Assembly (NCBI RefSeq): GCF_009865135.1
Contig: NZ_WWGH01000001.1
Span: 4,712,001 to 4,776,000 of the forward strand
Length of the DNA stretch: 64,000 nt
DNA from: Streptomyces sp. SID8374
GTDB taxonomy: Bacteria; Actinomycetota; Actinomycetes; Streptomycetales; Streptomycetaceae
Reading direction: 5' to 3'
In this document: one piece after another, positions 19,245 through 27,992 of the stretch
How the letters are laid out: each line of letters starts with the position of its first letter
Position numbering within the stretch: position 1 is the first letter of the stretch
The notes under the pieces: generated by a model
Seen by the model: the letters and a program-made list of their open reading frames with translations, nothing else
What the model was told of the DNA's origin: nothing
Database searches by the model: none
Translations under genes and position numbers: made by a program

Positions 19245-20414
19245 TTACGGGCGGTCCGCCAGGGCCCCGGCCGACGGCACGGCGGCCGTCAGGGTGAAGA
19301 CCCCGCCCCCGGCCCCGGCGGTGAACTCCCCGCCCAGCGCCAGGACCCGCCCCCTGAGCCCCGCAAGCCCCGTCCCGTGCCGCTGCCCGGGCACCGGCGA
19401 ACCCGCCTCGCCCCGCTCGGCGCCGTCGTTGCGGACCGTCAGCCGGATCGCCGTACCGTCGGCCCGCAGGGTGATCTCGCAGTAGGTGGCCGCGCTGTGC
19501 TGGAGTACGTTGCCCACCGCCTCGCGCAGGACGAAGCGCAGGCACCCCACGACCGCCGGGGCGGCCCCGGTCCGCGGTGGCAGCACGGTCCGCACCTCCA
19601 CCCCGGAGGCGTTGAGCACCCGCTGGGCGTGGGCGAGCTCCTCGGAGAGGGAGAGGCCGCCGTCCGGCCGACTGATGGAGCGCACATCGTCGTGGAGCCG
19701 CCGGGCCAGGGTGATGATCTCGGTCAGCGCGGCGCGCTCCGGCCCGGAGCCCGTCGGCGTACCGCTGCCGCGCAGCGCGCTCTCCCCCTGCAACGCGATC
19801 GCCGTCAGCGACGACCCGACCAGGTCGTGCAGGTCCTGCTGCATCCGGGCCCGCTCCCGCTGCTCCGCCAGGTGCGCCGCTTGCTCCCTGCTGCCGTGCA
19901 GCCGGGCCGTGAGCAGGGCGAGGTGGGCCACCGCGAAGACGGTGCTCGCGGTGATCGCCGTACCGAGCAGGACGCTGAGCGGGCTCCGGTTGGTGTCGAT
20001 GAGGCCGGTGGCGGCCAGCAGCGGCCCGCTGGCCCCGACCGCCAGCGCGAGCGGTACGGAGGTGCCCGGCGGCAGGGTCAGCAGGACGGCCCCGGCCAGG
20101 AAGCCCAGCAGGCTCAGCCACCGGTAGTGGAAGAGCAGCAGCGGGAGATACGTGAGCACCGCCTGGACGAGCAGCAGCCCCCACCGCCAGCGGTAGGGGA
20201 GCCGGTACGGCGGCGGCGCGTACTGGCCCAGCATGAGCGCGGGCATCAGCACCAGCACGGTCAGCCCGGCGACCACCGACCGCTTGCCGAGCGGCGAGGC
20301 CGCCACGTCCAGGGCGACCAGGGCGAGGGACCCGACCACCAGGACGATCAGCGCCCCGAGGGCGACCCCGGAGCCCTGGGGCGCGGCTGTGCCGAGGCGG
20401 ATCGGACGCCGCAT
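19245..20414 (-). CDS. Two-component sensor histidine kinase, NarL/DesK class
   Basis: Membrane sensor kinase of the HisKA_3 class, which phosphorylates NarL/FixJ-type regulators. The 389-residue reading has five or six N-terminal membrane helices (to about residue 175), then the phospho-acceptor helix [20 protein letters not shown] (His in DLHD). An HATPase domain follows with N-box [12 protein letters not shown] and a G-box [11 protein letters not shown]. The ATG at 20414 (MRRPIRLG) has a strong GGGGAGG five bases upstream; a start 12 codons earlier (20450, MSGTRSG) lacks one. The likely partner regulator is at 27390-27992, separated from it by the Rhs gene. The signal sensed is unknown. 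Confidence 0.9.
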
Positions 20415-20579
20415 CAGCGCCTCCCCCGGTCCACTTCGTGTACCTGACATCGTGAAATCTTCACTTCTTCACCACTGGTCCCCCTGATTTGATCGCCTCT
20501 GTTTGATGCCCACTACAACAGAGAGTTGCCGAACGTGTCGGACCACATACCTCCCGCCCATGGGTGGGAGGGCTCATCG

Positions 20580-23500
20580 ATGGCCCTGCAACGGCGAAGA
20601 CGCCTTCTACCCCGAATCGCCCTCGGCGCGGCCATGGTGCTCGCGGTGGAGATGGCCCTGGTGACGGAGAGCGGCCAGGCCGTGGCCCTCACCCAGCAGG
20701 TGCAGAAGGCTCCGGTCGAGGAGAAGCCGGTCGCCGAGGGGCCCCGCGAGGCCGCGGACATCCTCTCGGCGAAGGTCGCCGCCAAGCTGTACGGCAAGCG
20801 GGTGGAGGCGCTCTCCGAGCGTACCGAGACCTCCACGACGTGGGTGAACAGGGACGGCTCGCTCACCACCGAGCTGACGGCCGGTCCGGTCCGCTTCGAG
20901 GAGAACGGCGGCTGGACCGATGTCGACGTCGAACTGCGCGAGACGGCCGACGGTGTCGAGGCCAAGGCCCACCCGAACGGTCTGAGCCTGGCGGGCAAGG
21001 GCGGTACGCCGCCGCGCTCGCCGCGCGAGGCGGACAAGGCCCCCGCACGTGATCTGGTCACCCTCGGCGAGGGCGACGAGCGGATCACCCTCCAGTGGAA
21101 GGGCGGACTGCCCGCCCCCGTGCTGGACGGGACGCGGGCCACCTACCCCGAGGCGCTGCCGGGCGCGGACGTCATCGTCGAGGCGACCCGTACGGGCTTC
21201 GAACAGTACGTCGAGATCAAGAAGCGTCCGGCCGAGGGCTACTCGTACACCCTGCCGCTCAAGGCCAAGGGGCTGACGGCCGAGGAGCAGGCGGACGGCA
21301 GTGTGCTGTTCACCGACCGGAAGAACAAGAAGCGGGCCCTGATGCCCGCGCCGGTCATGTGGGACGCCACCGTCGACAAGGTCTCCGGCGAGCACACGCG
21401 CCGGGTGCCGGTGGCGATGAAGGTGGTGCGCACGAAGGGTTCCGTCGACCTGGTCGTCACGCCGGACGCGGAGTTCCTCGCCGATCCGGAGACGAAGTAC
21501 CCGGTGACGGTGGACCCGTCCACCTCATCGCTGTCGAACGTCTTCGACACGTACGTCCAGCAGGGCGAGACCGGCAACCTGTCCAACGACATCGAGCTGG
21601 ACTTCGGCAACCCCGGCACGACGAACGCGAACGGCACGCCCCGTACCGCCCAGTCGTTCATCACCTGGAACACCGCGCCGATCGCCGACGCCCTGGTCTC
21701 CAGCGCCAAGCTGAGCCTGTGGAACTTCCACTCGGCCAACACCACCTGCGCCCTCCAGCCATGGCAGGTGTGGTCCTCGCCCGCCGCGACGACGGCCAGC
21801 CGGTGGACCAACCGGCCGACGATGACCGCGCTGAAGGCGGAGTCCACCGAGACGCGGGGCAACGCGGCATGCACGTCCCAGCCCGACGGCTGGATCAACG
21901 CGAACGTGACCACGCTGGCCCAGGAGTGGGCCTCGGCCAAGGCCACCCGCGGCCATGTGGGCATCCGGGCCAAGAGCGAGACCACGGTCGCCCAGTGGAA
22001 GCGGGTGAACTCCGCCAACGCCGCGAAGAACCCGCCGAAGCTCTCGGTGACGTACAACTTCCGGCCACGCACCGGCACCAAGCAGGAGGCCGGTCCGCCG
22101 TTCTTCTCCTACTCCGGCGCCTACATGGTCAACACCCTGACGCCGACGCTGCGCGACACGTTCGTCGACGCGGACGGTGACAAGGTCAACGGCACCTTCC
22201 AGATCTTCGACAGCGCCACCAACACGCAGGTCGGCTCTCCGATCGTGTCGAAGTTCGTGGCGTCCGGGCAGGCAGCGTCGGTGACCGTCCCGGCGGGGGT
22301 GCTGGCCGAGGGCAGGACGTACAAGTTCCGTACGAGTCCCTACGACGGCACGCACTACAACACCGGCTGGTCGGAGTGGAAGACCTTCACGGTCGACACC
22401 AAGGCCCCCTCCGCCCCGACGAAGATCGCCTCCACGGACTACCCGGTGGGGCAGTGGGTCAAGGGCGAGGGCCAGCCGGGCACCTTCACGGTCACCCCGC
22501 CGAGCGGGTCCGACCACAACTGGTTCGAGTGGTCCCTGGACGGGGTGAACTGGACCAAGGTCGCTGCCGGCGGCACCTCCGCGAACCGGACGATCACCCT
22601 CTCCCCGCGGAAGAACGGCAGCCACACCCTCCAGGTGCGTTCCGTCGACAAGGCGGACAACAAGTCCGAGGCGCTGGAGTACCTCTTCCACGCCGGTTCG
22701 GGCGGCTTCGTCCAGCCCTCGGAGGGTGAGCGGACCGCACGGCGGCTGCCGCTGGTCGCCGAGGCGGAGGCCGGCAAGTACAACGCCGTCGCCTTCTCCT
22801 GGCGCCGCTCCGAGGCCGACCCCTGGGTGCGCATCCCCGCCGGGCACGTCACCTCCGGCGGCACCGCGCTGACGGCCTGGCCCGTCCCGCTGACCAACGG
22901 CAGGAACGCACCCCTGGTGTGGAACGCCACCAGCACCGTCGACCCGGACGGCACGATCCAGCTCAAGGCCGACTTCACCGGCCCGAACTCCGCCACCAGC
23001 AGCACCGTGCCGCTGACCGCGGTCGTCGACCGCAACGCGGACGGCGCGGCCACCACCGAGGTGGGGCCGGGCTCGGTCAACCTGCTGACCGGCAACTACA
23101 CGCTCTCCGAGACCGACGTCTCGCTCTTCGACCTGTCGGTGTCGCGGACGGCCGCCTCGCGCACCCCGAACCGGGGCGCCGACCAGGAGGGCCAGGCCGC
23201 GATCTTCGGCAAGGAGTGGGTCTCCGGCACCGCCGCCGAGGCCACCGAGTCCGACTACAGCCATGTCCGGCGCATCTCCGACACCGCGGTCGACGTGGTG
23301 CTGGAGGAGGGCGACGCGATCCACTTCACCGCCAACGCGGCGAAGAACGGGTGGATCCCGGAGCCCGGCTCCGAGGACCTGACCCTCAAGGGCAGTGTGA
23401 GCACCACGTTCACGCTCTCCGACACCGAGGGGACGGTCACGACCTTCGCCAAGGCGGACGCCGCGGCGACCACCTGGCAGGTCAGCACCACACTCTTCGA

Positions 23501-26500
23501 CGGTATCGCCAACTCCACGACCAAGGTGGTCTCCGAGACCGTCACGGTCGGCGGCAAGAAGCTCGCCCGCCCCAAGCGGATCATCGCACCGACCTCGGCC
23601 GCCACCACGGCCGCGTGCGAGACGACGCCCGCGACCAAGGGCTGCAAGGTCCTGGAGTTCGTCTACGCGACCACCACCACGGCCACCGGCACGGAGACCA
23701 ACGCCCAGTTCGGCGACTTCACCGGCCAGGTCCGCGAGATCCGCGTCTGGGCCACCAGCCCCGGCGCCTCCGCAGCCACGGCCACCGCCGTGGCGACCTA
23801 CCGCTACGACTCGGGCGGCAGCCTGCGCCAGCAGTGGGACCCCCGGCTCAGCCAGGCCTCCCAGACCCAGTACGCCTACTACGGCGGCCGGGTCACCTGG
23901 ATGCAGCAGCAGAGCCAGCTCCCGTACACCTTCACCTACGGCAACGCCGGAGCCGGTACGGCTCCCGGCGACGGGATGCTGCTGAAGTCCTCCCGGCAGG
24001 CCCTCAAGCAGGGCACCGCCGAGACGGTCGAGGGCAACGCCACCACGAGCGTCGTCTACGGTGTCCCGCTCACCGGCGCCAAGGCGCCGTACGCCATGGG
24101 CGCGGCCTCCGTGGCGGCCTGGGGTCAGCTCGACCACCCCACGGACGCCACCGCCGTCTTCCCCGCCGACGCCGTTCCCGCCTCGCACGACGGCGCCGAC
24201 CTGGCATCCGGCGGATACCGCCGCGCCACGGTGACCTACCTCAACGCCTCCGGTCGTACGGTCGACTCGGCCACGCCCGGTGGTCACATCAGCGCCACCG
24301 AGTACGACCGTTTCGGCAACACCGTCCGTGAGCTGACCGCGGGCAACCGGGCGCTGGCGCTCGGCGCCACGGCGGACGAGCGGGACGTGCTCACCGATCT
24401 CGGCATCATCGGCCGCTCGGCCGCCGAGCGGGCCCAGCTGCTCTCCACCACGTCCCTCTACGACGAGCGCGGGACGCGGGAACTGGAGCAGTTCGGCCCG
24501 ATCCGCCGGGTGGACCTGACCGAGGACCTCAAGGAGGGCAGTACCGTCCTGGTCGCCTCCGGCACCTCGGTCCCGGCCCGTTCGTGGACGGTGAAGGAGT
24601 ACGACGAGGGCCGCCCGACCGACGGCACGGCCACGGTTCGTGACCAGGTGACCCTGACCGTCTCCGGGGCCCGGGTCCGCGACTACTACTCGGCGATGGG
24701 GGAGAAGCGGGTCGAGTCCGTCCAGTTCGACTGGGTCAAGGGCCTGCCCACCCTCACCACCAAGGACGCCGGCGGCCTCAACCTGACCACCACGACCGGC
24801 TACGACGGACAGGGCCGGATCACCTCCCAGGTGCTGCCCGGGGGGACGGGCAGCGACGCCGCCACCCGGATCACCGAATACTGGTCGGCGACCGGTACCG
24901 GCTGGTGCAAGGGGCGTCCGGAGTGGGCGGACCGGGTGTGCTGGACCGGACCGGGCGGTGACATCACCGGCGGCGGCTCGCAGCCGAACAAGCTGGTGAA
25001 CAACACCACGGAGTACGACCGCTGGGGCAACCCGGCCACCGTCACCGACGAGGTCGGCGGGGTGTACCGGACGACCACGACGACGTACGACGGCGCGGGC
25101 CGACCGGTCTTCTCGAAGACCGCGGGCGGCCTCGGCCAGGAGGTCCCGGAGACCACCACCGAGTACGACGCCGCCACCGGACAGGTCACCAAGGTCATCT
25201 CGCCCACCGGCGGGACCATCACCAAGGCGTACGACAAGCTCGGCCGCCTGATCTCCTACACCGACGCCGACGGCGGTGTCACGAAGACCGAGTACGACCT
25301 GCTCGACCGCAAGGTCAAGGTCACCGACTCGATCCCGTCCACCGTGACGTACACCTACGACCACAGTGCCGAGCCGCGCGGTCTGGCCACGCGGACCACG
25401 GACTCCGTCGCCGGGGCCTTCTCGACGGCATACGACGCCGACGGCTCCGTCTCCACCGAGAAGCTGCCCGGCGGCTACACGCTGAATGTCACCGAGGACA
25501 CCGCCGGCTCCACCACCTCGCGCGTCTACACACGCGACAGCGACGGCACCACCGTCTTCAGTGACCGGGTGAGCCAGTCCGTCCACGGTCAGGTGACCGG
25601 TCACCAGGGCTGGTCCAGCCAGACCTACCGCTACGACCGGGCCGGCCGGCTGACCGGTGTCGATGACACGGCCGGCGAGGTCTGCACCCGCCGCGCCTAC
25701 ACCTTCGACAAGCGCACCAACCGCACCGCCCTGTCCACGTCGGCCGCCGCCCCCGGCGCCGACTGCACCTCCACGGGAGCCACCTCCACCGCCTACACCT
25801 ACGACAGCGCCGACCGGCTCATCGGGTCCGGCCACACCTACGACGCCTTCGGCCGCACCACCGCGCTGCCGGGCAGCACCATCGGCTACTACGCCAACGA
25901 CCTGGTCCACCGTCAGACGGCGGGCGACCAGCGCCAGACCTGGCAGCTCGACGCCGGACTGCGCTTCCGCTCCTGGACGGTGGAGACGGGCTCCGGCACC
26001 ACTTGGACCCGCACCGGCTCCAAGCTCAACCACTACGACGGCGACGGCGACAACCCTCGCTGGATCGTGGAGGACACCGGCACCGGGGTGCTGAGCCGCA
26101 ATGTCGAGGCCCCCTCGGGCGACCTCGCGGCCACCACGTCGAAGACCGGCGACACGGTGCTCCAGCTCACCACCGTCCACGGCGATGTGGCCCTCCAGCT
26201 CCCCCTGGACCCGGAGAAGGCTCCGGTCGTTCTGGACAGCGACGAGTACGGCAACCCCCGCGATGGCCAGGAAGCCACCCGCTACACCTGGCTCGGCGCC
26301 AAGCAGCGCTCCACGGAGACCCTGACGGGTCTCACGCTCATGGGGGTGCGCCTCTACAACCCGGCGACCGGGCGTTTCCTGTCGGTGGACCCGGTGTACG
26401 GGGGCAACGCCAACGCCTACGACTACGTTCACGCCGACCCGCTCAATCGCCTCGATCTCGACGGCAAGTGGGGCATCTCCAACCGGTGGAAGCGCAGGCT

Positions 26501-26789
26501 GTTGCGCGGTGCGGTGTACGCGGTCGCCGGCCTTGCCACCGCAGGTGTCTGTGCGGCGACGGGAGGGCTCGGCTGTATCGTCGCCGGTGCGGCCATCGGC
26601 GCCGCCTGGGGTGCTGCGGACTACCGGGCCAAGAGGACTTTCGGCAACCGCGCCCGCTACAGTCGTCGGGACTTCCGGGCGAGTATCTGGCAAGGGGCTG
26701 GATTCGGCTTCGCCAACGGTGTGGGCGGAGCCGCTTGGAAGTTCGGTGCCAGGTTCTTCAGGAAGGGCACAGGTAAGCGCCGGCGATGA
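20580..26789 (+). CDS. Secreted Rhs/YD-repeat polymorphic toxin-like protein
   Basis: Giant exported protein (2069 residues from this start). It has a signal peptide ([11 protein letters not shown] then a hydrophobic run), a DNRLRE-type domain (about residues 300-490; Phe-Asp-Thr-Tyr-Val and WVRV-like strands), fibronectin-like segments, then many YD repeats (e.g. [30 protein letters not shown]). The Rhs core motif [17 protein letters not shown]...[13 protein letters not shown] comes about 105 residues before the end. After the core is a 107-residue variable tip rich in Arg/Lys, with a Gly/Ala-rich hydrophobic stretch. This is the architecture of Rhs toxins that deliver a C-terminal effector. 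The ATG at 20580 has GGGAGG upstream; GTG 20535 is an alternative. No catalytic motif is recognised in the tip. Confidence 0.9.
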
Positions 26790-26950
26790 TCAAACTGTCC
26801 GACATAGCGATTTTCGTTGCACTTCTGGCGATCGGCGGAGTGCTCGCCGTTCTCTTCGGGGGCGGTTGGCAGAGCCAGGCGTCACTCGTGGTTTTCGGGA
26901 TAGGCGGAGGGGCCTTGGTCGGTACCCGCATCCGGCAGCGGAGAGAGTGA
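26786..26950 (+). CDS. 54-aa two-helix membrane protein, candidate Rhs immunity protein
   Basis: A short ORF whose ATG overlaps the Rhs stop codon (ATGA, 4-base overlap), so translation is likely coupled. The 54 residues start [20 protein letters not shown], a membrane helix. A Gly/Trp/Gln turn and a second helix ([14 protein letters not shown]) follow, with a basic tail RIRQRRE. By hand count it is about 61% GC, lower than its neighbours. Genes placed directly after an Rhs tip usually encode the cognate immunity protein. An integral membrane immunity protein would suit a membrane-active toxin. Function is inferred from position only. Confidence 0.6.
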
Positions 26951-26990
26951 TCTGAAGCAGCTGTACGAAGGCAGATCCCCTGCCTGAGCG

Positions 26991-27169: not shown

Positions 27170-27421
27170 GTGACAGGGCGAACGAAACGCGAGAAGACCG
27201 AGGTGGCCGCCGTGTGGGCGGTCGCCGGTGTGGTGTACGCCCTCGCCGTCCTGTGCGCGGTGCTCCGGGGACCGTGGATGCTCCTCTACTTCCTGCCCGC
27301 CCTGGTCGGAGTCCTGGTCGCGGTGTGGTGCGTACGGCGGGGAGTCCTCGTCGCCGTGAACGCCCGGGCCGTGGGCGATAATCGAATCCGTGATCAGGGT
27401 GCTGGTGGTCGACGACCATGA
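27170..27421 (+). CDS. Small membrane protein of unknown function
   Basis: An 83-residue product with a charged N terminus (MTGRTKREKTE), two membrane helices (VAAVWAVAGVVYALAVLCAVL and MLLYFLPALVGVLVAVWCV) and a basic tail. The GTG at 27170 is preceded by GGGGGAG. It overlaps the response-regulator gene by 32 bases in another frame, suggesting cotranscription and possible translational coupling. It might modulate the kinase/regulator pair. No family recognised; it could be a spurious frame, though the hydrophobic pattern argues against that. Confidence 0.55.
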   Translation: MTGRTKREKTEVAAVWAVAGVVYALAVLCAVLRGPWMLLYFLPALVGVLVAVWCVRRGVLVAVNARAVGDNRIRDQGAGGRRP

Positions 27422-27992
27422 CGTGGTGCGGTCCGGTCTGACGGCACTCCTGTCGGCCGAAATCGGCATCGAGGTGGCCGGCCAGGCGGCGGACGGTCCC
27501 GCCGCGATCACCGAGGCGGAGCGGCTGCGTCCGGACGTGGCGCTCCTCGACATCGACCTGCCCGGCCTGGACGGGATAGCCGTGGCCGACCAGCTCGTAC
27601 GGGCCCTGCCCTCCTGCCGTACGGTGATGCTCACCGCACTCGACCGGCCCGGCCATCTGCGCCGGGCGCTGGACGCCGGGGCCGCCGGATACCTGCTGAA
27701 GAGCACGCCCCCCGCGCAGATCGCCGACGCCGTCCGGCGGATCGCCGCGGGCGGCCGGGTCATCGACGCCCGGATGCGCGGGGAGGAGCGGTCGGGGCCG
27801 AGTCCGCTCACCGACAAGGAGGCGGAGGCCCTGCGGCTCGCCGCCGAGGGGGCGCACTCCCGGGAGATCGCCGCCGACCTGTTCCTCAGCGTGGGCACCG
27901 TACGCAACCGGCTCTCCTCGGCGGTCGGCAAGCTCCACGCCCGCACGCTGGTCGACGCCGTGCGGATCGCCACGCAGCACGGGTGGCTGTAG
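27390..27992 (+). CDS. Response regulator, NarL/FixJ family
   Basis: A 200-residue transcription factor. The receiver domain has the acidic pair Asp8/Asp9 (LVVDDHD), phospho-acceptor Asp54 (ALLDIDLPG), switch Thr82 (VMLTAL) and Lys104 (GYLLKST). The C-terminal LuxR-type helix-turn-helix reads LTDKEAEALRLAAEGAHSRE, then FLSVGTVRNRLSSAVGKL. The GTG at 27390 gives MIRVLVVDDH; the Shine-Dalgarno is weak, consistent with coupling to the overlapping small ORF. The likely partner is the sensor kinase at 19245-20414, which is class-matched but transcribed divergently across the Rhs insertion. Confidence 0.92.
   Translation: MIRVLVVDDHDVVRSGLTALLSAEIGIEVAGQAADGPAAITEAERLRPDVALLDIDLPGLDGIAVADQLVRALPSCRTVMLTALDRPGHLRRALDAGAAGYLLKSTPPAQIADAVRRIAAGGRVIDARMRGEERSGPSPLTDKEAEALRLAAEGAHSREIAADLFLSVGTVRNRLSSAVGKLHARTLVDAVRIATQHGWL

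What the first reader, a model, noticed from the sequence alone, without database searches (positions are those of the whole stretch)
26467..26950. Candidate new Rhs toxin tip with an overlapping 54-aa membrane immunity protein
After the conserved Rhs core ([17 protein letters not shown] ... LDLDGKWG) the protein has 107 extra residues, and a 54-codon ORF starts within the stop codon (ATGA overlap). The small ORF encodes two membrane helices. Established: Rhs C-terminal tips are polymorphic toxins whose immunity gene is the next ORF. Inference: this is a membrane-acting toxin with an integral-membrane immunity protein. The small ORF is easily missed because of its size.
Basis: partly seen in the sequence, partly recalled or inferred. 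Interest (0 to 1): 0.75.

Follow-up and report, generated by a model that had tools for sequence, protein, structure and literature searches.

The report
Rhs membrane-toxin tip with tiny immunity protein
A soil bacterium (Streptomyces-type) carries a giant, probably secreted Rhs protein whose exchangeable, oily C-terminal tip is most likely a membrane-damaging weapon against rival bacteria, paired with a 54-residue membrane protein that most likely protects the producer; the pair is new, the kind of system is known.

Summary
A 2087-codon Rhs/DNRLRE protein ends in a 107-residue tip after LDLDG, and a 54-codon ORF starts inside its stop codon. (1) The tip is not a conserved part of the protein: an orthologue at the same locus in G115 is 61-94% identical per block over the backbone but 22% over the tip, with different ORFs behind it. 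(2) The 54-aa protein is conserved as protein in 10 genomes, dN/dS 0.20 against its nearest relative. The same tip plus the same small gene occurs on a diverged backbone in G225. Six further tips share a C-x7-C, glycine-rich core; five of them and both tips of this pair were checked, and each is followed by an ORF with two hydrophobic segments; these fall into five groups without detectable homology. Some copies of the 54-aa gene without the tip lie beside another likely immunity gene. Best reading: a new effector-immunity pair of the Rhs polymorphic-toxin kind, working like Tse5/Tsi5 (membrane depolarisation). Toxicity, membrane action and protection are inferred, not shown.

The parts
20526..26465 (+). 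Rhs / DNRLRE backbone of the probably secreted polymorphic toxin (start uncertain: TTG 20526, GTG 20535 or ATG 20583); signal-like N-terminus [23 protein letters not shown]
   Evidence: ORF; NCBIfam DNRLRE 3e-16, YD_repeat_2x 8e-16, Rhs_assc_core 3.8e-13; signal-like stretch and alternative starts read by eye
26244..26465 (+). end of the Rhs-associated core, up to LDLDG
   Evidence: TIGR03696 residues 1907-1980
26466..26786 (+). variable C-terminal tip (107 codons, KWGISNRW...GKRRR): hydrophobic glycine/alanine-rich part, then a cationic part; inferred membrane-acting toxin
   Evidence: no Pfam/NCBIfam family above cut-off; 22% identity to the tip of the orthologue in G115 against 61-94% per block over the backbone; 105-aa form: pI 12.0, 21 K/R, 2 D/E, 20 G, 22 A; three helices predicted, pLDDT only 58
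26550..26576 (+). C-x7-C motif in the hydrophobic part of the tip
   Evidence: present in all 8 tips compared (G000, G225, G559, G524, G511, G605, G476, G043), which were chosen as relatives of this tip
26786..26950 (+). 54-aa membrane protein with two hydrophobic helices; inferred cognate immunity protein, start overlaps the Rhs stop (ATGA)
   Evidence: family alignment; dN/dS; AlphaFold2 hairpin pLDDT 88.5
27170..27421 (+). 83-aa hydrophobic ORF between the pair and the response regulator; role unknown, kept near the response regulator in relatives
27390..27992 (+). LuxR-type response regulator that marks the locus in relatives
   Evidence: Pfam Response_reg 9.9e-24, GerE 7.3e-11; synteny
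19245..20450 (-). probable sensor kinase (read from sequence, not by a family search), divergent from the rhs gene
   Evidence: ORF; homologue divergent from rhs in G115, 79% identity

Best explanation
This is an exchangeable effector-immunity cassette at the 3' end of a WapA-like Rhs gene, probably exported by Sec. The Rhs shell carries the tip to the cell surface (inferred). On contact with a rival bacterium the tip is released, and its glycine-rich hydrophobic helices plus cationic helix insert into the rival's cytoplasmic membrane and collapse the membrane potential (inferred). The 54-aa two-helix protein sits in the producer's own membrane and blocks insertion or assembly of the tip (inferred). 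Shown here by sequence: the tip is variable, the pair moves and is exchanged together, the 54-aa frame is under protein-level constraint, and relatives of the tip are followed by hydrophobic ORFs.
For: Swap at an orthologous locus: G115 keeps the kinase-like gene, Rhs, 83-aa homologue, response regulator and S1 protease, but has another tip and two 184-aa ORFs with 4 and 3 strong hydrophobic segments. Same pair elsewhere: the G225 tip is 55-63% identical and the small ORF 53-54%, on a backbone 37-60% identical per block over most of its length, 71% in the last 83 aa. Tip relatives: 7 of 7 C-x7-C tips checked (both of this pair, five of six others) are followed by an ORF with two hydrophobic segments at a cut of 1.2. 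The caller fixed chose the same frames in all 7; at a cut of 1.6, 6 of these 7 calls have 1-2 segments, G511 none because of a later start; the eighth tip, G043, gets a low-scoring 158-aa ORF with 4. In the wider 13-tip group the called next ORF has at least one strong hydrophobic segment in 13 of 13. Pairing: among 67 Rhs C-ends, 28 pairs share both tip and next-ORF homology, 41 tip only, 6 ORF only, 2136 neither; permutation maximum 7 in 2000. Small ORFs with a strong hydrophobic segment follow 18 of 70 core-derived Rhs ends, against 0 in 40 Markov simulations and 2 of 69 reverse-complement controls. Constraint: dN/dS 0.20 (54-aa, vs G245); tip pair G000-G225 dN 0.31, dS 1.39. In G380, G279 and G649, 54-aa copies without the tip lie beside the YWLA family, which follows Rhs genes bearing the SCGFW tip in G714, G019 and G091.
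Against: No experiment. The tip model has low confidence (pLDDT 58, pTM 0.31). Exactly this tip with exactly this immunity family was found together in only 2 genomes. Behind the five other C-x7-C tips checked, the next ORFs show no detectable homology to the 54-aa protein. Several of the called next ORFs score poorly for coding: G000 -1.9, G559 -15.8, G476 -16.1, G043 -11.2, L119 -8.2. Hydrophobic next ORFs are common behind Rhs genes in general (40 of 65), and the tip/ORF hydrophobicity association is modest (22 of 28 vs 18 of 37, p = 0.02; Spearman 0.52, n = 43), with rows that are not independent. Many tip-homologous pairs lack ORF homology (41). Glycine-zipper segments can also serve translocation rather than killing (PMC10240207, title and abstract start in a search listing only).
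Confidence: 0.77

Rival explanations
1. The hydrophobic part of the tip only helps the Rhs tip cross or enter the target membrane, and the cationic C-terminal part is the toxin with an intracellular or nucleic-acid target; the 54-aa protein blocks entry rather than activity.
For: Longer Streptomyces-type Rhs tips carry a hydrophobic stretch before a Hint-like and further domain (L011, L017, L018, L020, domains read by eye). The tip is strongly basic, pI 12.0.
Against: After the hydrophobic first half only about 50 residues remain, with no recognised domain. In the 8 C-x7-C tips the columns kept best are in the hydrophobic core, not in the basic tail. Of the longer or soluble-looking tips listed, L011, L017, L018, L022, L024, L025 and L031 are followed by ORFs without a strong hydrophobic segment.
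Confidence: 0.12
2. The tip is a truncated or degenerate remnant and the 54-aa ORF an orphan immunity gene for some other, lost toxin.
For: The tip is short. Several genomes carry 54-aa homologues without this tip on a stretch with a response-regulator homologue (G380, G279, G245, G649, G714). Copies at that hub (without G245) have dN/dS 0.69-1.24. G295 has a tip relative cut off from its core by a stop.
Against: The G225 tip has nearly the same length and is 57% identical, at another place, with the homologous gene 27 nt behind it. The tip pair shows constraint (dN 0.31, dS 1.39). Tips of 107-121 residues recur in two other genera. ATGA coupling.
Confidence: 0.06
3. The 54-aa protein is not immunity but a general small membrane protein or an export/processing helper for the Rhs protein.
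For: It is also found where no Rhs match was seen in the stretch fetched (G056, G005, G612), and small hydrophobic ORFs follow many Rhs genes (18 of 70).
Against: A general helper should be the same for all tips, but the next ORF changes with the tip and differs at the orthologous locus. Only 12 of 392 (E <= 0.01) and 6 of 393 (E <= 1e-5) genomes have it, whereas the Rhs core end is found in 52 of 121 (E <= 1e-6).
Confidence: 0.05

Closest known systems
Tse5 / Tsi5 of Pseudomonas aeruginosa
   Same: Rhs protein with a C-terminal tip that inserts in membranes and depolarises cells; immunity protein with two predicted transmembrane regions (PMC9637101, passages read)
   Different: Tse5 is a type VI secretion cargo of a Gram-negative with a PAAR-like N-terminus; here a signal-like N-terminus and a DNRLRE domain. 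Tse5 was not compared directly with the tip; no solved structure matched the tip alignment convincingly.
WapA-type Rhs toxins of Gram-positive bacteria
   Same: Large YD-repeat protein exported by Sec, with a variable C-terminal toxin and an immunity gene (PMC12704120, passages read)
   Different: Sortase or SecF-like partners, described there, were not looked for here; tips and immunity proteins were not compared.
EsxX / ExiCD of Staphylococcus aureus
   Same: Glycine-zipper, membrane-depolarising toxin countered from the outside by polytopic membrane proteins that also occur in antitoxin islands of strains without the toxin (PMC12744356, abstract and outline)
   Different: Type VII secretion LXG protein, not Rhs; sequences not compared. 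No second, soluble immunity protein was recognised here.
CDI ionophore toxins with CdiI immunity proteins
   Same: Exchangeable C-terminal toxins that dissipate membrane potential, with highly polymorphic cognate immunity proteins (PMC11630599, abstract and outline)
   Different: CdiA delivery; five-helix ionophore domains, against about three predicted helices here at low confidence.
Tox-WTIP; Imm17 and Imm-CdiI (Zhang et al. 2012)
   Same: A two-helix pore-forming polymorphic-toxin domain, and immunity families with two transmembrane helices (PMC3482391, passages read)
   Different: The tip has no Wx[ST]IP motif and the 54-aa protein no WxW motif (read by eye); no Pfam match to the 54-aa protein.

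Membership tests
Rhs / polymorphic toxin-immunity system | conserved Rhs core followed by a variable tip | tested here: met
   TIGR03696 at residues 1907-1980; backbone 61-94% per block but tip 22% identical in the orthologue G115
Rhs / polymorphic toxin-immunity system | immunity gene directly downstream, exchanged with the tip | tested here: met
   genomic pattern only; function not shown
Rhs / polymorphic toxin-immunity system | tip is toxic and the downstream protein protects | not testable with these tools
   needs expression and competition assays
Rhs / polymorphic toxin-immunity system | displaced (orphan) immunity genes near the toxin locus | tested here: met
   genomic pattern only: 54-aa genes beyond the response regulator in G649/CB01373 and G714, and beside a decayed rhs in G380
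WapA-type secreted Rhs protein | Sec signal peptide | tested here: inconclusive
   [23 protein letters not shown] stretch read by eye; no signal-peptide predictor available
WapA-type secreted Rhs protein | cell-wall anchoring domain | not tested
   DNRLRE domain found; wall binding not assessed
Tse5-like pore-forming Rhs tip | membrane-spanning helices in the tip | tested here: inconclusive
   one hydrophobic region peaking at 1.9 and a weaker second one at 0.7; helices 4-30, 32-57, 65-98 at pLDDT 58
Tse5-like pore-forming Rhs tip | sequence or fold homology to Tse5-CT | not tested
   Tse5-CT was not fetched and no fold search was run; a profile of 13 tips matched no solved structure convincingly (best E 0.75)
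Tse5-like pore-forming Rhs tip | two-helix integral-membrane immunity protein | tested here: met
   predicted only: hydropathy and AlphaFold2 hairpin

The most novel reading that the evidence does not exclude
The tip belongs to an undescribed superfamily of short (about 105-155 aa) cationic, glycine-rich Rhs tips with a C-x7-C hairpin, spread over at least three genera of one family. Unrelated two-helix membrane proteins have been recruited independently to neutralise the same kind of membrane insertion (five groups of next ORFs without detectable homology behind seven such tips). The locus itself is an exchange hub inside a split two-component locus, where displaced membrane-immunity genes collect.
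Probability: 0.5. Interest if true: 0.62.

Novelty: new member of a known kind. Interest (0 to 1): 0.46.

Why it matters
The worked-out membrane-acting Rhs tip cited here, Tse5, is a type VI secretion cargo of a Gram-negative. This pair, with the wider set around it, suggests that Streptomyces-type bacteria use many short membrane-acting Rhs tips guarded by small membrane proteins, often of 55-80 residues, that are easy to miss and match no family in Pfam or NCBIfam so far as tested. It gives a small, cloneable test case for how a two-helix protein blocks a membrane-inserting toxin, and for how immunity genes are displaced and kept.

Tried and rejected
Family libraries: Pfam and NCBIfam gave nothing above cut-off for the tip or the 54-aa protein. 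For 13 related tips neither library gave a match at E <= 0.01. For 8 relatives of the 54-aa protein only one-member weak Pfam matches (DoxX_2, DUF7940). PHROGs and PADLOC were not searched. Solved structures: nothing credible for the tip alignment. Plasmid collection: no match by protein for tip or 54-aa protein; by DNA short pieces (12% of the query) in 3 records, in annotated Rhs/DNRLRE genes in 2 of them. Named-genome scan with the 54-aa alignment gave 3 loci, on contigs of the same length as those of G279, G245 and G649.

Considered and rejected: that the tip is a conserved part of the Rhs protein, and that the 54-aa frame is spurious. The overlapping 148-codon frame at 26509-26955 was not tested separately. 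Synteny by the response regulator in 61 genomes: of 30 loci only L047 was displayed, without an Rhs gene; L046 and L048 were translated only at the match, the others not examined.

Rows dropped: one search listed 122 places; the best 74 less 4 (three at contig ends, one with a 52-aa open frame) gave the 70 analysed (30 loci given plus 40 fetched). One search left out 5 of 70 (2 without ORF, 1 duplicate, 2 with tip under 50 aa). One search used the other 65 plus G225 and G714. In one search, 98 tips were collected and 87 kept (tips under 50 aa and exact duplicates dropped); L003 and L019 were left out by hand and loci without a recognisable core end were skipped; L016 joined the profile group but was left out of the 13. 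Five weak hits (E 8.6e-4 to 4.1e-3) were not examined. G043 had no next-ORF check.

Results against: the leave-one-out profile test failed for 2 of 13 tips (L006, L144). Correction made on re-checking: one search had seemed to show no hydrophobic ORF behind L008 and L014; the fixed caller finds one in both.
Full report
What is there. The window lies in a 7.78-Mb genome. A 2087-codon frame at 20526-26789 has a DNRLRE domain, YD repeats and an Rhs-associated core. After LDLDG at the end of the core come 107 residues, then TGA at 26787-26789. A 54-codon ORF starts at 26786 in an ATGA overlap and ends at 26950. The tip (105-aa form) has pI 12.0, 21 Lys/Arg, 2 Asp/Glu, 20 Gly and 22 Ala. Its first half is hydrophobic (17-mer Kyte-Doolittle up to 1.9). 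The 54-aa protein has two hydrophobic segments (3.0 and 1.5). AlphaFold2 models it as a helical hairpin (pLDDT 88.5). The tip model, three helices, is poor (pLDDT 58), and no fold search was run.

Is the tip variable? Yes. G115 has an orthologous locus with the divergent kinase-like gene, Rhs, 83-aa-ORF homologue, response regulator and S1 protease in the same order. Its Rhs is 61-94% identical per block of 83-150 residues over residues 1-1983 but 22% over the tip, and the 54-aa gene is replaced by two 184-aa ORFs with 4 and 3 strong hydrophobic segments. G076 and G017 have core ends 92% and 88% identical to the window's with tips 30% and 12% identical, followed by a 63-aa hydrophobic ORF and a 108-aa ORF without a strong hydrophobic segment. 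In G649/CB01373 and G714 the Rhs gene beside a response-regulator homologue carries yet other tips and other next ORFs.

Is the pair a unit? G225 has the same tip (63% with the core end, 55% over the tip) followed 27 nt later by a 56-aa homologue of the 54-aa protein (53-54% identity). Its backbone is only 37-60% identical per block over most of the length, 71% in the last 83 aa. None of the kinase, response-regulator or 83-aa genes was matched in the stretches fetched around it. In 392 genus genomes the tip-plus-core-end query gave 40 genomes at E <= 0.001; only G225 resembled the window's tip closely, and G295 had a 44% match with a stop inside (not followed). In 393 genomes of the family the tip alone gave 6 at E <= 1e-6: G225, G559, G524, G511, G605, G476, from three genera. 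These, the window and G043 share C-x7-C and a glycine-rich stretch. In 7 of 7 whose next ORF I checked (all but G043) that ORF has two hydrophobic segments at a cut of 1.2. The frames were first picked by eye. The caller fixed then picked the same frames in all 7; at a cut of 1.6 six have one or two segments and G511, called with a later start, none; three of the seven (G000, G559, G476) have negative coding scores. By BLAST the seven fall into five groups: G000 with G225, G605 with G476, and G559, G524 and G511 each alone (distant homology between such short proteins could be missed).

A wider control. From a core-end search (52 of 121 genomes, 122 places) I took 70 Rhs ends and called the next ORF with one rule. 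Small ORFs (80 aa or less, score >= 0) with a strong hydrophobic segment follow 18 of 70, against 0 in each of 40 Markov simulations and 2 of 69 reverse-complemented controls. Tip homology and next-ORF homology coincide: 28 pairs both, 41 tip only, 6 ORF only, 2136 neither, permutation maximum 7 in 2000; three of the 28 pairs involve the added loci G225 and G714. I suspect that many tip-only pairs share just the linker after the core or have a badly called ORF; this was not tested. Hydrophobic tips are more often followed by hydrophobic ORFs (22 of 28 against 18 of 37, Fisher p = 0.02; Spearman 0.52, n = 43), but the rows are related to one another. A looser group of 13 tips is held together by profile; 11 of 13 beat 200 of their own shuffles in a leave-one-out test, 2 do not. 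The called next ORF has at least one strong hydrophobic segment in 13 of 13, three of them (L075, L006, L119) with negative coding scores.

The 54-aa family. Ten genomes hold it: G000 and G225 behind this tip; G380, G279, G245, G649 and G714 on a stretch with a response-regulator homologue, without the tip; G056 and G005 behind an acidic ORF of no known Pfam family; G612 elsewhere. In G380, G279 and G649 it lies beside a 203-aa YWLA family. That family follows Rhs genes with an SCGFW tip in G714, G019 and G091, so it is itself a likely immunity family. In G649 a remnant of another Rhs core lies between the present pair and the response regulator, and in G380 the Rhs gene is decayed. These look like displaced immunity genes, comparable to the polyimmunity loci of PMC3482391 (passages). 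dN/dS is 0.20 for G000-G245 and 0.24 for G279-G225, but 0.69-1.24 among the hub copies G380, G279, G649 and G714. That fits relaxed selection once the toxin is gone, but about 55 codons and, for G380-G649, only 5 changes make this weak.

How it most likely works. Steps shown by sequence: variable tip, exchange as a pair, constrained small frame, hydrophobic ORFs behind relatives. Steps inferred: export (signal-like N-terminus, by eye), contact delivery, insertion of the tip in the target membrane, depolarisation, and blocking by the 54-aa protein in the producer's membrane. The nearest working model is Tse5/Tsi5: Tse5-CT depolarises cells and is a transmembrane protein, and Tsi5 has two predicted transmembrane regions (PMC9637101, passages). 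EsxX/ExiCD is a glycine-zipper parallel with orphan membrane immunity genes (PMC12744356, abstract and outline). CDI ionophores show the same logic of polymorphic cognate pairs (PMC11630599, abstract and outline).

Novelty. No Pfam or NCBIfam model fits the tip above cut-off, none the 54-aa protein, and no solved structure the tip alignment. Among the papers listed by six searches (four of the lists were cut short) no title or abstract start deals with membrane-acting Rhs tips of Streptomyces. Most of these papers were seen only as listings, and the library lacks most subscription journals. The kind of system is known; I found no name for the pair or for the C-x7-C tip group. I file it as a new member of a known kind.

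Noticed in passing
19245-20450 (-) and 27390-27992 (+): The rhs gene sits between a divergent probable sensor kinase and a response regulator. The same arrangement is kept in G115, with a kinase remnant in G380, suggesting a split two-component locus that may control the toxin.
   Followed up: partly
27170-27421: 83-aa hydrophobic ORF whose homologues lie near the response regulator in relatives (G115, G279 twice, G245, G380, G714); it may be an orphan immunity gene or part of the two-component locus.
   Followed up: partly
L116 (G000:C1:1917234-1919634): The same genome has a second Rhs gene whose 128-aa tip is followed 21 nt later by a 64-aa ORF with two strong hydrophobic segments, resembling by eye the 69-aa ORF behind the Rhs gene of G649/CB01373.
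   Followed up: no
L084, L086, L092: Rhs tips of one family are followed by ORFs with one N-terminal hydrophobic stretch and a soluble remainder, lipoprotein-like by eye, as expected for immunity against a toxin acting outside the cytoplasm.
   Followed up: no
L108, L109: In G056 and G005 the 54-aa homologue lies behind an acidic ORF (81% identical between the two), close to DUF397-like and helix-turn-helix genes (these read by eye).
   Followed up: no
L105, L036: In G380 and G279 the 54-aa homologue lies a few kb or less from smpB/tmRNA-like sequence (read by eye), a common integration site.
   Followed up: no
L005 (G295:C47): A 44% relative of the core end plus tip has a stop codon just after the Rhs core; not followed.
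   Followed up: no
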